Shown here piece by piece: positions 4,941 to 62,890 of a stretch of DNA of 64,000 bases; the stretch's first letter is position 1; every line of letters starts with the position of its first letter. The position numbers and the translations under genes were made by a program. The DNA lies in NCBI GenBank assembly GCA_963556255.1, contig OY744610.1:66802757-66866756 (forward strand), read 5' to 3'. The notes under the pieces were generated by a model. It saw only the letters and a list, made by a program, of their open reading frames with translations. It did no database searches and had not been told where the DNA came from. This DNA is from Allolobophora icterica (taxonomy: Eukaryota > Annelida > Clitellata > Crassiclitellata > Lumbricidae).

Positions 4941-4993
4941 GCGAAAATTTGACCTATATTATGTAGGTAGCAACCGAAATAAAGGTGTCTAAA
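4941..4993 (+). promoter_or_regulatory. Start-block module, plus (upstream CGAAAAT, TATA, AAAGGTGTCTAAA)
   Basis: CGAAAAT at 4942, TATATT at 4955-4960 and the start block at 4981-4993; TATA start to block start is 26 bp. It is followed by the conserved AAGCACAGGGCTCCAGCT segment (about 5008) and then the (AG)n array, which appears to cut the downstream half of the unit. Confidence 0.55.
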
Positions 4994-5096
4994 GCGCATC
5001 TTGAAAGCTAAGCACAGGGCTCCAGCTCATTCATGATCGCTGCGTCATGTCCGAAGGGTTGTCCAGAGATGCGAAGTAAATTTACGAATCCGGTTC

Positions 5097-5230
5097 AGAG
5101 AGAGAGAGAGAGAGAGAGAGAGAGAGAGAGAGAGAGAGAGAGAGAGAGAGAGAGAGAGAGAGAGAGAGAGAGAGAGAGAGAGAGAGAGAGAGAGAGAGAG
5201 AGAGAGAGAGAGAGAGAGAGAGAGAGAGAG
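5097..5230. repeat. (AG)67 dinucleotide microsatellite
   Basis: 134 bp of uninterrupted AG. The R-E and S-L repeat frames across it are translations of the microsatellite. Confidence 0.97.
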
Positions 5231-5409
5231 TTTCTGTACGAACGTTATGGAGTTTTCTAGAGACTGACCCATTTGGACATGGTTGTAATTAAACTATCAC
5301 TGTCGACCTCTTACCATTATTTAAAACTGTCACACCTGTCTCTGGTTTTCCTGCCTCGTGCTGTGTTACCTTCACCTGTTTGTGTCTTGTGAGCTTGTGT
5401 GGCGGTAGG

Positions 5410-5630
5410 CATGGGAGGTGTTACCTTTTCGCTAATGAGAAGATTCTAAAGAGGCGTATGAAGAATGTCATCTTTGCACTTCTGAACATTTCTAAAGAGA
5501 AGTGTGATACCTCTGCAACATTTCCATGGGCATAAGATGGACCACATATGGACTCTATACGAGTCCTACATATGAATATGGGTCCTATAAGGGCTCCGTG
5601 TGAATATCGTTTCAATATGTACAGGAAAAA
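5410..5630. repeat. Dispersed repeat R-A, copy 1
   Basis: About 210 bp, starting near GCTAATGAGAAGATTCTAAA and running to GGGCTCCGTGTG, recurs at 18965-19185 with few differences. No target duplication or terminal repeat was found by eye, so the class is unknown. Confidence 0.7.
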
Positions 5631-5639
5631 CATTAAAAT

Positions 5640-6150
5640 ATGTGATGCGTTTTGGGAAAATGGCCCATAAGTCTCTCCACAGTTACTGAGAAAACTGGCT
5701 TTAAAGTAAGTATAGGTCAGTTTGGGTGAAAATGAGTTCTTTGTCATTTCAGATACATTGATGTGGCTGGTAAAGATTGAGTAAAGAAAATTTTAAAACA
5801 TCTCAAGTTTTATTCTTGAAATGATGACTTTTGTGAGAGGCTTAAAAGGGACTATAAGTATCGTGTTATCCTTTCTAATTTTGATAATAGTTTCAAGCAG
5901 ATAATAATTTTTTTTTATGTGGAACTATTTGTACACAAGAATAAAGTGCATGTACAAAACACATAATACGGTGATTGTACGGCATTATGAGCTGTGTTTA
6001 GTTACTATTTCGTGACGAATTCCGTGGTAAAGTTCTGTGAAAATTTCGCATTTTCTTCAGTGAAATATCCGAAAACTGTCGTTTGCGCATGTTCTGTTCT
6101 CAATAAGTTTTAAAAATACTTTGGATGAAGATATCGAGTTCATTTTTTCT
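5640..6150. other. Non-coding, AT-rich, nothing recognised
   Basis: No coding signature, terminal repeats or tRNA boxes seen. An eroded module start block may lie near 5845-5870 (GGGACTATAAGTATC), too weak to call. Confidence 0.4.
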
Positions 6151-6154
6151 ACGT

Positions 6155-7540
6155 TTTTATCAGACACTACCCAGGATTATGAATCAATACTTAACTCCAT
6201 TTGAGACTTATGGTCCCTTTTCTCAAAACGCATCACATATATAAAACATAGATATTAAATACTCGAAAAAAGGAAAGGTAGAAAAATAAATGTTTATGTT
6301 ATATATATAATATACAAAACAGCCTATATTTACCATGAGAAGAGCCTTGAGGCCAACATTAATTCATTCTGAGGATTTGATATAGCGCCTCTTCGAGATA
6401 CCTATATAGAGGCGCTGTATCAAATCATCAGGAACATAAACGAGCCCCTGAGGCTACTGATGAGCTATTATTAGCCACAACTAATTGCTTGTACGAACTG
6501 GATAATATAAAAGTTAATCACCGATTGAACGAAACTGAAATATATAGGATGAAAAATAAACAATTTAAAGGTGTTTTAACTGAATCTAGCATCATCTATA
6601 ACATCATCTGAATTAATCGTAATCAGAGAAAAATACGGCAGCCACATGAAGATGATCAATAAAGAAACATTCTCCAAGTAAAAGATAACTTTAAAATACT
6701 ATATATACACGTAAAATACTAATAGTTTTTGAATTTAATTGAAGTTGTCGTCAACAGCCATTGATATCATATGACGTAAACCATTGAAAGTAATAAAAGT
6801 TTATAGAAATTCAGCCTGCATAGTTCCGGTAAAATACTAATAGTTTTTGAATTTAATTGAAGTTGTCGTCAACAGCCATTGATATCATATGACGTAAGCC
6901 ATTGAAAATAATAAAAGTTTATAGAAATTCAGCCTGCATAGTTCCGGTTTGTCATTTTCTCTAGATTTACAATAGTGCAGAGAACGGTGCAAAATTATAT
7001 TCCTATCGACGTCAACCGTATTTGGTTGCATAAGATAGTAACATTTTATCGCTACAATTTATACACCTTTACTTAAAAAGCTCATTGTGCTATAATAACC
7101 CGTTGCGACGCTCACTTTACGAGGCCATTCATCTGGCAATAGATGAATGAATCCCAAAAGCAATTGTTGATGATTTTCTACTCACGACAGCCTTTCCCAG
7201 CCGTTCCCCAATGATCAAAATCACACACGAAATTGGCATATAAAGTGCACGAATAGCGCTTTCCCAAACAAACCGCAAGAGTTTTTGCCAATAGCATTAA
7301 TTCGTACGACAGCGAAACATTTAAGAAAGCGTCCGTTTAGAGAAGAACATCCTAAAACGACATCCAGATGTTCCAACTAGCTCTGTGCGTTTCTGTGCCC
7401 CTGTGTGCCTGGCTGTGCATGTATCTGTCTGTCTGCACGTTCGCGTGTCTGTGTATGGGTCGGTTTGATGTATATGAGCATGCGTGTGTAAAACACGCAA
7501 ACAGTCGTCGATGCCATAGGACCACACACGCAGGCAAAAA
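6155..7540. repeat. Long duplication SD3, copy 1 (with 11160-12330)
   Basis: Shared landmarks in the same order: TGTACAGGAAAAACAT, CGCCTCTTCGAGATACC, TTTGAATTTAATTGAAGTT, CTTCCTATCGACGTCAACC and AAGAAAGCGTCCGTTTAGAG. Parts also recur at 29500-29760, 32090-32770 and 37700-38050. The block contains H1-like hairpin sequence and a weak minus-strand start block at 7053-7072. Confidence 0.75.
6711..6948. repeat. 118-bp tandem duplication
   Basis: The segment from GTAAAATACTAATAGTTTTT (6711) to TGCATAGTTCCGG is repeated at 6829 with very few changes. Copy 2 of SD3 (11690-11815) has it only once, so this duplication came after SD3. Confidence 0.85.
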
Positions 7541-60798: not shown

Positions 60799-61324
60799 AA
60801 TGTAAAACGAAACCGCAGATGATTTGAATGTGTTCTGGCAACCTAACTACATCTTGCGGCTTCGAAATCCGTTGAGGTTGACATGAAAATATTCTTTGAA
60901 CAGTTCTCATTGTAAAAATGCGCTACGTGAAGCGTCCTTATAACACACGCAGATATATAAACGTATTGAGCTTTTGTGAGGTACTAAAAATGCGCTATAT
61001 GAAGTGTCCTGATGCAAACATACAGATATCAAACACTGTGATTGAAGGTTGATGAAATATTAACAGGAGAAGAGGAATATATTTGAAAGTTTAAACAACA
61101 ACGGAACATTTTTGAGACATCTTTTGACCGCAGAGCCATTGACGTCATCTTAAAGAAAATCTAATTCTACCTTTTGTATGACGTTCAATTTAACTAATGA
61201 TTAGCAGATCAAGTTGTTTTCATTGCTTTTACTATACCTCATGGCATCAAAGGCTGTTGACGTCAATACTACAAAATTTGGTTCTCTTTCAGTAAACAAT
61301 TATGTGTATATAAGTTTATTTAAC

Positions 61325-61354
61325 GACGCATTCATATCGATGATGATTAGCGTC
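61325..61354 (+). ncRNA. H2 hairpin
   Basis: GACGC (61325-61329) pairs with GCGTC (61350-61354), and CAT (61333-61335) pairs with ATG (61343-61345). Confidence 0.45.
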
Positions 61355-61638
61355 AGACAAACAACATAAAATATACAGAGTACATAATGGGCGACGTTTC
61401 GGGACCGAGATATGTGCCACTGCCGGCTACCTTACCAGAAAACCCGTTGGAGAAACTGGTAAACGCTTGAACGAAAATGAGAGAGATGTATACACCGTAT
61501 GGAGAGTCAGCCAATAAAATGTTCACTACCTGAATTAACGCCATCTTGAAACTACATGTACCAGTGAAAGAACGAGGGCCATGGCAACGGCCTGGTAGCC
61601 ATAAGATATCGTTAACACTGGAAATTAGTACCAGTTCC

Positions 61639-61678
61639 TTATACACCTCTTTTAAGTATTACAGTCGCCCTATAAATT
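61639..61678 (-). promoter_or_regulatory. Start-block module, minus, diverged
   Basis: TTATACACCTCTTTTAA at 61639-61655 and CTATAAATT at about 61670. Duplicate of 10335. Confidence 0.4.
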
Positions 61679-61932
61679 AGAGCTCTTGCACAGTACGTAC
61701 CAATGAGAATGGTGACCCGATTCTGCGCGTGAAATCATTATCATTATAAGTAGGCCTACTGATACTATTATTACTTTTTAAAATTAGTCGTTCACAGTTA
61801 TTATTACGAAGAATGCTATCATTATTATCATTACTACTATTGTCATTAAAATTGGTACTACAACTACTTATATTACTTTTTTGTCCGGTAGTAGTTATTA
61901 TCATCAGGCTCCTATTGTTATTATTATTACTG

Positions 61933-62096
61933 CTACTACTACTACTACTACTACTACTACTACTACTACTACTACTACTACTACTACTACTACTACTACT
62001 ACTACTACTACTACTACTACTACTACTACTACTACTACTACTACTACTACTACTACTACTACTACTACTACTACTACTACTACTACTACTACTACT
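61933..62096. repeat. (CTA)n microsatellite
   Basis: About 54 uninterrupted CTA triplets. Poly-Leu, poly-Thr and poly-Val frames are artefacts. Confidence 0.95.
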
Positions 62097-62279
62097 ATTC
62101 TCGTCACAATTTTGATATCTACAGGGGTGTCAATCCCCCTAAGTCATTGGAGCAACTTCCCCTTCCCCTCTTCTTCCCCTTCCCCTTCCCCTTCCTCCCC
62201 CCTAAAATTGTGGCACACACGTACTGACAGATCTCCCCTCCCCTATTTCTTGGATGAAGCATTTGCTTCAAAGTTTCTA

Positions 62280-62890
62280 TGGTGTAGACGCCCCTGGATA
62301 TCTATTCCATCAGTTCTCTATACTCTCTTGCTCTGTACGTTTCTGTACGTCTACCTATCTGTTAGTATTTGTCTGGCTGTATGTTTGCTTGTCTGTGTAT
62401 GCAGTTCTAGGCACACAACCATCTGAAATCCTACTCATTAGCCATATGGTCATCTATAATTCTAAATATTGACCATGTAAATATCGACAGTTCCATTCAT
62501 TAGCCATATATAGCCATCTACAGTTCCAGGAATAAGCCACAATACCTCAGAACCTCCACCCTGACCATACCCACTCTCAAAACCGCATTATTAACGCATT
62601 TTTCCAACGTTAGTAGCCTACCTGCCATGAGCTTGACAACAAAGAACTCCATTAACTATCCATAGAACGAAAATTAAACCTATACTGTGTCGAAAGCAAC
62701 CAAGAAAAGGTGTATAACGGACCTTAATATTTTTCTGCTTAGTTTGCTTTGTTTAACGACATCTTGCGGCTGTCGACCTCGTCTTAAAGAGACTTAACAC
62801 ACACTTTACTGACTCGTTGGAAATGAATTGATGTGAGGGATAAGGTTTAGTCTACAATATGCTGACTAGTGACTGTTTAACGACGCTGTG
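62280..62890. repeat. Duplication SD8, copy 2
   Basis: See 53930-54660. Followed directly by SD1 copy 3 (62885-63095), the same junction as at 54660, so both belong to one duplication of about 1.3 kb or more. Confidence 0.75.
62665..62718 (+). promoter_or_regulatory. Start-block module, plus
   Basis: GAACGAAAATTAAACC at 62665, TATACT at 62681, AAAGGTGTATAAC at 62706-62718 (25 bp). Confidence 0.4.

What the first reader, a model, noticed from the sequence alone, without database searches (positions are those of the whole stretch)
4941..62718. A dispersed family of about 58 promoter-like modules: TATA box plus AAAGGTGTCTAAA at fixed distance
The start block AAAGGTGTCTAAA (allowing small changes) appears about 58 times, on both strands, roughly once per kilobase. 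In the 30 or so copies with a clear TATA-like box, the distance from the TATA start to the block start is 24-28 bp, on both strands. Many copies also carry CGAAAATGA just upstream of the TATA. The copies are otherwise strongly diverged, so keeping three blocks and a spacing suggests use. This is the distance expected between a TATA box and a transcription start. I know of no named family with this signature. The interpretation as ncRNA promoters is inference; an old transposon family is the main alternative.
Basis: partly seen in the sequence, partly recalled or inferred. Interest (0 to 1): 0.9.

Follow-up and report, generated by a model that had tools for sequence, protein, structure and literature searches.

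The report
Distal arrays of TATA-block modules, earthworm
An earthworm genome carries clusters, mostly towards chromosome ends, of short units that look non-coding and share a promoter-like start (a TATA box at a fixed distance from a conserved 13-letter block), mixed with pieces of a tiny jumping element built on a self-cutting RNA; whether the units are used as promoters is not shown.

Summary
AAAGGTGTCTAAA occurs 61 times at up to 2 mismatches (3.0 expected); 40 of 61 have a TATA-like hexamer starting 23-29 bp upstream (8% at random sites), 25 of 61 an upstream CGAAAATGA-like box (4%). The host is an earthworm by COX1. The exact block occurs 4,643 times genome-wide, its reversed word 113 times. 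A 22-base version has 38 places, 31 within 8 Mb of contig ends, where 23% of the 16 large contigs lies. Many modules carry a further motif at +45. Nearby lie decayed type-P1 twister ribozymes, mostly on the opposite strand. Elsewhere that ribozyme belongs to a SINE-like element of about 115 bp with a (CTA)n tail and 12-15 bp shared flanks in 3 of 4 copies read. For the block modules I found no contiguous terminal repeats, target duplications, RNA fold, general terminator or coding signal. Copies compared without selecting them for the block keep block and TATA better than the spacer, but the excess is uneven and one test does not show it. Best reading: a shared core promoter of small non-coding units (0.45). 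Main rival: an old, locally duplicated repeat (0.37).

The parts
4941..4993 (+). module (box/TATA/block)
6527..6579 (+). module
7058..7110 (-). module
8313..8365 (+). module, left end of a convergent pair
8721..8773 (-). module, right end of a convergent pair
9108..9160 (-). module
10117..10169 (+). module
11493..11545 (+). module
11919..11971 (-). module
12898..12950 (+). module
13567..13619 (-). module
15981..16033 (+). module
16928..16980 (+). module
17868..17920 (+). module
18290..18342 (+). module
18797..18849 (-). module, weak TATA
20506..20558 (-). module
22328..22380 (-). module, head-to-head pair, weak TATA
22404..22456 (+). module, head-to-head pair
22935..22987 (-). module, head-to-head pair
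23013..23065 (+). module, head-to-head pair
24279..24331 (+). module found by weight matrix only
25347..25399 (+). module found by weight matrix only
26547..26599 (+). module, weak TATA
28083..28135 (-). module
29742..29794 (-). module
31809..31861 (-). module
32390..32442 (+). module
32767..32819 (-). degenerate module, no TATA
33554..33606 (+). module
33915..33967 (-). module found by weight matrix only
34583..34635 (+). module
35397..35449 (-). module
38851..38903 (+). module, convergent pair
39299..39351 (-). module, convergent pair
40033..40085 (-). module
40549..40601 (+). module
41200..41252 (+). module
42141..42193 (+). module
44604..44656 (+). module, convergent pair
44876..44928 (-). 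module, convergent pair, weak TATA
45558..45610 (-). module
47522..47574 (+). module, weak TATA
48014..48066 (+). module
48096..48148 (+). module 82 bp after the one before
49662..49714 (-). module, head-to-head pair
49745..49797 (+). module, head-to-head pair
51382..51434 (+). module, convergent pair
51809..51861 (-). module, convergent pair
54440..54492 (+). module
54868..54920 (+). module
55393..55445 (+). module
55551..55603 (+). module
56987..57039 (-). module
57870..57922 (-). module
58841..58893 (-). module, no clear TATA
59774..59826 (+). module, convergent pair
60200..60252 (-). module, convergent pair; its TATA continues into a (TA)n repeat
62666..62718 (+). module, weak TATA
10207..10250 (+). 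downstream motif B at +50 of a block
17013..17056 (+). motif B at +45
24363..24406 (+). motif B at +44
40634..40677 (+). motif B at +45
41290..41333 (+). motif B at +50
54526..54569 (+). motif B at +46
62752..62795 (+). motif B at +46
39956..39999 (-). motif B at +46
35321..35364 (-). motif B at +45
29666..29709 (-). motif B at +45
28007..28050 (-). motif B at +45
20427..20470 (-). motif B at +48
23968..24037 (+). degenerate type-P1 twister ribozyme (motif C read on its sense strand)
   Evidence: 41.8 bits, E 8.7e-6, below the gathering score 67.2
24216..24283 (-). degenerate twister-P1
   Evidence: 40.9 bits, E 1.5e-5
22532..22593 (-). degenerate twister-P1, antisense to the module at 22444+
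   Evidence: 31.6 bits, E 0.0069
56092..56161 (-). degenerate twister-P1
   Evidence: 30.5 bits, E 0.015
44453..44523 (-). degenerate twister-P1
   Evidence: 28.8 bits, E 0.045
49912..49973 (-). weak twister-P1 match, antisense to the module at 49785+
   Evidence: 26.1 bits, E 0.28
54684..54751 (-). weak twister-P1 match, antisense to the module at 54480+
   Evidence: 26.0 bits, E 0.29
38691..38759 (-). weak twister-P1 match
   Evidence: 25.2 bits, E 0.5
60380..60454 (+). weak twister-P1 match
   Evidence: 24.3 bits, E 0.89

Best explanation
The modules are copies of one core-promoter type: an upstream CGAAAATGA box, a TATA box starting 26 or 28 bp before the block, and a start block AAAGGTGTCTAAA followed by GAGC and, in many, a motif at about +45. 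They stand at the start of many short, apparently non-coding units that spread by local duplication into clusters, mostly towards chromosome ends, of an earthworm. TBP-type machinery would bind the TATA and start RNA inside AAAGGTG. Shown: the architecture, the clustering, unequal divergence in two of three tests, no coding signal. Inferred: that transcription starts there and that the RNA is used. Near many units lie pieces of a twister-ribozyme SINE, mostly on the opposite strand, so RNA from these promoters would be antisense to that element. A small-RNA role (piRNA-like) is the natural guess and rests on inference alone.
For: Spacing: TATA starting at -29..-23 in 40 of 61 window copies and 134 of 175 others against about 8% at random sites. 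Conserved positions are islands with spacers between. In pairs not themselves selected for the block (28 anchors, 232 pairs, not independent): block +0.171, TATA +0.117, motif B +0.105, box +0.085 over the outer sequence, spacer -0.059. In family g1, looked up by sequence at +18..+190 only, 18 of 19 hits keep the block at <=2 mismatches and 17 of 19 the TATA; the 9 non-seed copies at E<=1e-15 all have block <=2 mismatches and TATA >=5 of 6. The same module heads different downstream sequences. Distal clusters: 31 of 38 extended-block sites within 8 Mb of contig ends against 23% of the large contigs; the 8-Mb line was drawn after seeing the places. No target-duplication signal outside the TATA itself. 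No coding signal in 383 same-strand open stretches near modules.
Against: No RNA data. In the test conditioned on a good block the block surplus (+0.125 to +0.128) is about what conditioning alone would give, the TATA surplus (+0.064 to +0.089) stays below that, the upstream box is -0.033 or +0.034, and with longer flanks the spacer is not below the outer sequence (-0.005). In g2 the TATA region (0.706) is less alike than the interior (0.806), in g1 about equal (0.793 and 0.795). 13 of 27 g2 hits, 11 of 22 g3 and 10 of 23 g4 have 3 or more block mismatches, many of them no recognisable block, and TATA >=5 of 6 is kept in only 13 of 27, 7 of 22 and 13 of 23. No excess of TTTT, no general splice donor, no strand skew downstream. 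No RNA structure: mean z 0.07 and -0.01 on the two strands for 83 modules. The one feature with a sure strand, the twister, lies mostly on the opposite strand. Strand agreement is regional at best: 30 of 35 exact blocks on + in C1:1.82-2.29 Mb, a stretch I picked, but 61 + and 39 - over the 100 places listed (my counts), 33 and 28 in the window.
Confidence: 0.45

Rival explanations
1. An old repeat family (mobile element or degenerate tandem repeat of roughly 130-300 bp units) that multiplied by local duplication; the TATA and block are parts of its once-functional end and are no longer used.
For: Same-strand profile hits (partial ones included) at 75-199 bp from one another are common, 109 pairs against 1 convergent and 10 divergent (some of the 109 come from one exact 128-bp array of 9.2 copies in L035); similarity of convergent units tends to stop about 53 bp upstream of the blocks on both sides; convergent neighbours outnumber divergent ones at 200-599 bp, 38 against 15; the conditioned divergence test fits neutral decay; modules are mixed with twister-SINE pieces.
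Against: No target-duplication signal, and ends that share motifs but no contiguous terminal repeat; clustered, not evenly dispersed; spacer drifts faster than motifs and interior in two tests; g1 copies keep the TATA.
Confidence: 0.37
2. A retrozyme-like twister RNA on the opposite strand: tandem monomers cut by the twister into small circles, the block and TATA being conserved RNA sequence or the 3' part of that RNA.
For: Motif C is a type-P1 twister (up to 62.6 bits in cluster loci); the nearest one within 600 bp of a block mostly has a fixed relative strand (102 against 36), with peaks near +150 and -250; in L035 one unit runs straight into the next, blocks 284 bp apart.
Against: Only 6 of 78 twister-core copies have a block within 170 nt downstream and 7 of 78 keep the cleavage-site motif by my pattern; the four dispersed copies read have no block; no fold signal for block plus motif B.
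Confidence: 0.12
3. Protein-coding gene cluster with shared promoters.
For: TATA-type core promoter in duplicated arrays; 383 of 2,074 open stretches of >=50 codons start within -150..+600 of a module on its strand, and 78 of them have similar partners.
Against: Those partners (48 pairs, 2,758 codons) differ at codon positions 1-3 by 0.186, 0.162, 0.236, about the same ratio as unattached ones (0.237, 0.202, 0.304), and 821 of 1,133 changed codons change the residue; block-to-motif-B spacing (41-56 bp, one of 21) is not in steps of three. Exons under 50 codons were not tested.
Confidence: 0.03

Closest known systems
C. elegans type I piRNA gene clusters (PMC11262695 and PMC6436959, starts of abstracts seen; PMC6317315, abstract and passages seen)
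   Same: Layout: very many short, separately promoted units in Mb-scale clusters, defined by a short conserved element.
   Different: Here the conserved block lies at or after the presumed start, with a TATA box; the Ruby motif CTGTTTCA is at chance level in the window (3 found, 3.09 expected); no RNA shown.
Metazoan hammerhead retrozymes (PMC7761336, passages seen; PMC7229834, listing and start of abstract only)
   Same: Small non-coding repeats of about 150-300 bp, partly in tandem, with a self-cleaving ribozyme.
   Different: Twister instead of hammerhead, mostly decayed; the review says metazoan retrozymes seem to lack promoters; the block modules mostly stand without a nearby intact ribozyme.
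Twister at the 5' end of RTE retrotransposons (one sentence in PMC7761336, given there as in preparation)
   Same: Twister at the 5' end of a retroposed element.
   Different: Here an element of about 115 bp without ORF: twister, hairpin, (CTA)n tail; its helper was not sought.
TATA/initiator core promoters in general (recalled)
   Same: TATA-to-start spacing.
   Different: AAAGGTGTCTAAA is no initiator motif known to me.

Membership tests
TATA-type core promoter | TATA box about 24-31 bp upstream of the start | tested here: met
   Spacing to the block only: 40 of 61 and 134 of 175
TATA-type core promoter | RNA starts at the block | not testable with these tools
   No transcript data on hand
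DNA transposon/MITE with terminal inverted repeats | Contiguous terminal inverted repeats | tested here: not met
   The convergent units aligned share motifs, not contiguous ends
DNA transposon/MITE with terminal inverted repeats | Target site duplications | tested here: not met
   49 convergent pairs; the best offsets (13 and 10 of 49) are inside the TATA palindrome, the next ones outside it reach 5 of 49 with one side still in the TATA (mean over offsets 0.41)
DNA transposon/MITE with terminal inverted repeats | Dispersed copies | tested here: not met
   Clustered: 31 of 38 sites of the 22-base version near contig ends, six more at C2:62-68 Mb
Nematode-type piRNA genes | Ruby motif CTGTTTCA upstream | tested here: not met
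   3 in the window, 3.09 expected
Nematode-type piRNA genes | Capped short precursors and Piwi-bound RNA from each unit | not testable with these tools
   Needs small-RNA data
Twister-P1 ribozyme (motif C) | Conserved core and fold above the Rfam gathering score 67.2 | tested here: inconclusive
   Best 66.4 bits in dispersed copy L037; 62.6 in cluster locus L023; at most 41.8 in the window
SINE-like retroposon (dispersed twister element) | Target duplications | tested here: met
   3 of 4 copies read share 14, 15 and 12 bases on both sides, the fourth 6; 398 of 400 random pairs share 11 or fewer
SINE-like retroposon (dispersed twister element) | Simple-repeat tail and dispersed copies | tested here: met
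   (CTA)n tail in 4 of 4; 649 exact cores in the genome, of the 100 places listed 47 are spread over C1, while 19 on C2 form an array
SINE-like retroposon (dispersed twister element) | Pol III promoter head (tRNA, 7SL, 5S) | not tested
   No promoter search was made
Metazoan retrozyme | Hammerhead ribozyme | tested here: not met
   No Rfam match at gathering level in the window; no hammerhead in the E-value scans of the window and 16 loci
Metazoan retrozyme | Tandem monomers giving circular RNA | tested here: inconclusive
   One 284-bp head-to-tail junction in L035; no RNA data

The most novel reading that the evidence does not exclude
A lophotrochozoan counterpart of the nematode piRNA clusters: thousands of small non-coding genes in distal chromosome clusters, each with a dedicated TATA-plus-block promoter, whose RNA runs antisense through pieces of a twister-ribozyme SINE and so guards the genome against it. 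In the loci read, the nearest twister piece within 400 bp of a module lies antisense to its direction in 50 of 60 downstream and 54 of 65 upstream cases (adjacent twister pieces agree in strand in 42 of 73). By family the counts are only 4 against 2 downstream and 10 against 3 upstream, so shared descent may explain it.
Probability: 0.13. Interest if true: 0.92.

Novelty: new variant of a known kind. Interest (0 to 1): 0.62.

Why it matters
If the modules are promoters, this is a dedicated core-promoter type for non-coding arrays in an annelid; public earthworm small-RNA libraries (described in PMC6085071, passages seen) could test it at once. If they are relics, the case still documents a large, mostly distal repeat family and a tiny SINE-like element built on a twister ribozyme, of which I saw no description in the listings (open-licence papers only), apart from the one sentence on RTE elements in PMC7761336.

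Tried and rejected
Pairing of block and motif B as an RNA stem: 12 pairs in the consensus with a 2-nt bulge, 990 of 1,187 cells paired, but no covariation (1,007 of 2,000 shuffles reach it; an earlier count with shifted indices is void). A stem within motif B: 66% paired against 65% expected, 82 of 1,000 shuffles reach it. 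RNAalifold gave no common structure for the module or for motif C. The hairpin of motif C pairs in 75% of cells against 73% expected, 0 of 1,000 shuffles reach it, a small excess that relatedness could give. Fold z of motif C copies -0.36 and -0.46 on the two strands, control -0.25. Pol III terminators, splice donors, ATG and strand skew: nothing general; ATG is somewhat rarer at 0..+100, which the motifs themselves may cause. Transposon ends with target duplications: none found. Known RNA families at gathering level in the window: none; tRNAs in the window: none. Low-score miRNA matches in the E-value scans were not followed; those whose sequence was shown lie on repetitive sequence. Literature for the block string: 3 papers, unrelated by title; for pieces of the motifs: 36 papers, 35 listed, unrelated by title. 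Host guesses (mollusc, then soil animal) were dropped once COX1 pointed to an earthworm.

Full report
What is there. The window lies at G000:C9:66,802,757-66,866,756 of a 1.118-Gb assembly in 328 contigs, 1.5 Mb from the end of a 68.3-Mb contig. A COX1 gene on a 15.3-kb contig (C328) translates with the invertebrate mitochondrial code; its best named hits are earthworms, 96% identical to Eisenia nordenskioldi, Amynthas sp. and Polypheretima. The host is therefore an earthworm; the species is not known to me. Sixteen contigs of 44-104 Mb make up 1,108 Mb.

The observation. AAAGGTGTCTAAA at up to 2 mismatches occurs 61 times against 3.01 expected, and no shuffle reached it. A TATATA-like hexamer (5 of 6) starts at -29..-23 in 40 of 61 window copies and in 134 of 175 copies in other fetched stretches, against about 8% at random sites; the starts peak at -26 and -28. 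The upstream box CGAAAATGA (<=2 mismatches) is present in 25 of 61 and 50 of 175, against about 4%. Over 209 distinct copies the informative columns are the box at -39..-34, TATATAG at -26..-20, ATTT at -4..-1, the block at 0..12 and GA.C at +15..+18; the block columns are inflated because copies were picked by them. I list 59 modules: 56 of the 61 and 3 found only by a weight matrix; five hits were set aside as likely chance.

The module goes on. Downstream of the block on the same strand lies TTTAACGACATCTTG..GGC..GCC..GGCCGTTGACGTCGAC (motif B): of 81 block-B pairs 20-80 bp apart, 79 are at +40..+54 and 71 at +40..+49 (245 block-type and 231 motif-B hits in all in the looser count). A profile of 103 seeds finds 330 full or partial hits at E<=1e-3 in about 0.35 Mb, 90 of them in the window; the best hit in the reversed sequence has E 0.19.

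Clusters. The exact block occurs 2,309 + 2,334 times in the genome, its reversed word 61 + 52 times. The 100 places listed all lie in C1:0.7-3.9 Mb, 61 on + and 39 on - by my count; in C1:1.82-2.29 Mb, a stretch I picked, 30 of 35 are on +. A 22-base version has 38 exact places (control 0); 31 lie within 8 Mb of a contig end, where 23% of the 16 large contigs lies. The 8-Mb line was drawn after seeing the places, and places within a cluster are not independent. The other seven are at C2:62-68 Mb (six) and C14:12.7 Mb. Around the window the density is patchy: 0 to 11 blocks per 10 kb in 20 flanking stretches; two control stretches had 1 and 0.

How the copies relate. Within the window, segments of up to about 1.4 kb, some with more than one module, recur at 65-87% identity. 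Of 49 convergent neighbour pairs 150-900 bp apart, 26 are at 350-499 bp. Similarity between convergent units tends to stop about 53 bp upstream of each block. Left and right ends share the motifs, not contiguous sequence. Target duplications were sought at the 49 pairs; the clear excess is at offsets inside the TATA palindrome (13 and 10 of 49), the next offsets outside it reach 5 of 49. Same-strand profile hits are often 75-199 bp apart, and one exact tandem array on C1 has a 128-bp period and 9.2 copies.

Constraint. Test one, conditioned on a good block in one copy, gave the block +0.125 and +0.128 and the TATA +0.064 and +0.089 over outer sequence (flanks of 100 and 250 bp). With about 21% divergence, conditioning alone would give roughly +0.11 (my estimate), so this test shows no constraint. 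Test two compared copies through a third one, so that the compared copies were not selected: block 0.883, TATA 0.829, B 0.817, box 0.797, outer 0.712, spacer 0.652 (28 anchors, 232 pairs). Test three looked up copies only by sequence at +18..+190 (+45..+200 for g4). In family g1, 18 of 19 hits with the 5' edge keep the block at <=2 mismatches and 17 of 19 the TATA; in g2 14 of 27 keep the block, in g3 11 of 22, in g4 13 of 23, the rest ranging from partial to none, and one g2 miss (window 4944) is a misplacement next to the module at 4981. Identity in g1 (18 of 18 copies used): block 0.911, interior 0.795, TATA 0.793, spacer 0.663; in g2 (17 of 21 used, those with block <=4 mismatches): 0.856, 0.806, 0.706, 0.669. 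The block was compared without gaps and the rest with gaps, where random sequence gives 0.56-0.58. So the block is held more tightly than its surroundings, the TATA about as well as the interior or less, and the spacer drifts. This fits a promoter but does not prove one.

Coding. Of 2,074 open stretches of 50 codons or more, 383 start near a module on its strand; 78 of them have similar partners. Mismatch rates by codon position in these (0.186, 0.162, 0.236) have about the same ratio as in stretches away from modules (0.237, 0.202, 0.304), and 821 of 1,133 changed codons change the residue. Shorter exons were not tested.

The ribozyme. A second recurrent motif (C: TTTAACGACGCTGTGTCATAACAAAGATGATTAGCGTCGCCCTCCTCCTTTATCCAGGCTTGGGACTGGCA) has 147 profile hits, 37 in the window. 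Read on the other strand it is a type-P1 twister ribozyme: 55.8 bits in L035 and 62.6 in L023 (E 3.4e-11 and 9.8e-12), both below the gathering score of 67.2; nine matches in the window of 24-42 bits, of which the last four have E 0.28-0.89; six at E<=0.05 in seven C9 stretches; five in L029 and L030, none in L032, L033, L034, L010 and L011. The exact 31-base core occurs 649 times in the genome (control 0). The 100 places listed cover C1 and part of C2: on C1 47 are spread along the contig, 10 within 8 Mb of the ends where 7.2 are expected. Four copies read from that list share up to about 115 bases: twister, hairpin, TTAAACTGAAA, (CTA)n; two (L038, L039) are shortened or changed at the twister's 5' side. 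Three of the four have shared flanks of 14, 15 and 12 bases, the fourth 6; 398 of 400 random pairs share 11 or fewer. I read this as a small SINE-like retroposon with a twister at its 5' end. A review notes truncated twisters at the 5' end of RTE elements, as work in preparation (PMC7761336, passages seen). By eye, motif B on the opposite strand matches the 3' half of this element (hairpin, GTTAAAC, CTA-like tail); no statistic was made for that. In the clusters the twister copies are mostly decayed: 7 of 78 keep the cleavage-site motif by my pattern.

Relation of block and twister. The nearest twister piece within 600 bp of a block has the same relative strand in 102 cases and the other in 36, with peaks near +150 and -250; in the common arrangement the twister strand is opposite to the block strand. 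Grouping units by similarity leaves one family of 184 of 261 units, so the bias cannot be counted as many independent events (4 against 2 and 10 against 3 families).

What it does. Best supported: a core promoter shared by arrays of small non-coding units. Shown are architecture, clustering, drift of the spacer with retention of block and TATA in the best family, and lack of a coding signal. The start of RNA, its length and its use are inferred. No general terminator, splice donor, strand skew or fold was found. The strongest rival is an old repeat family spread by local duplication, and the tests do not exclude it. A twister RNA on the opposite strand explains motif C but not the block.

Comparison. 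It resembles nematode piRNA clusters in layout (more than 10,000 separately transcribed genes in two domains of 1.5 and 3.5 Mb; PMC11262695, start of abstract), but the Ruby motif is at chance level in the window. Earthworms are reported to make TE-derived piRNAs of 29-30 nt with 5' U (PMC6085071, passages), so the small-RNA idea can be tested with public data.

Noticed in passing
genome-wide; L037-L040 (C1:25.7, 51.0, 59.7 Mb; C2:40.0 Mb): SINE-like element of about 115 bp: twister ribozyme, hairpin, (CTA)n tail, shared flanks of 12-15 bp in 3 of 4 copies read; 649 exact cores in the genome.
   Followed up: partly
G000:C2:9,987,746-10,039,594: 19 exact twister cores on the + strand, 17 of them in one run spaced about 1.9-2.0 kb: a tandem array of a larger unit.
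   Followed up: no
window 1484-2739 (-): Serpin gene in two overlapping frames, the only cellular gene among the ORFs of >=150 aa scanned; best full-length database hits 61-65% identical and unnamed.
   Followed up: partly
window 7531-7865, 12371-12488, 58901-59036: 31-bp minisatellite (about CAGGCATAAGCCATATAGCCATCTACAGTTC) upstream of several convergent units, part of the recurring segments.
   Followed up: no
window 43625-44186, 53268-53850, 10463-10832: Very long simple repeats: (AC) 281, (TAC) 194 and (ATT) 124 copies.
   Followed up: no
G000:C257:6513-7808 and C8:61.145-61.148 Mb: A second COX1 without internal stops in the standard reading on a 28-kb contig (possibly a bacterium), and an inverted pair of COX1 copies with TGA codons on C8.
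   Followed up: no
window 35549-36736 (+), 48574-49505 (-): RNase H and reverse-transcriptase ORF pieces of non-LTR elements; relatives of the first up to 83-84% identical over part of its length in metagenome sets, one labelled as a Nitrososphaeraceae MAG, probably animal DNA in that bin.
   Followed up: partly
window 22328-22456, 22935-23065, 49662-49797: Three head-to-head module pairs with blocks 104-111 bp apart, similar to one another.
   Followed up: partly
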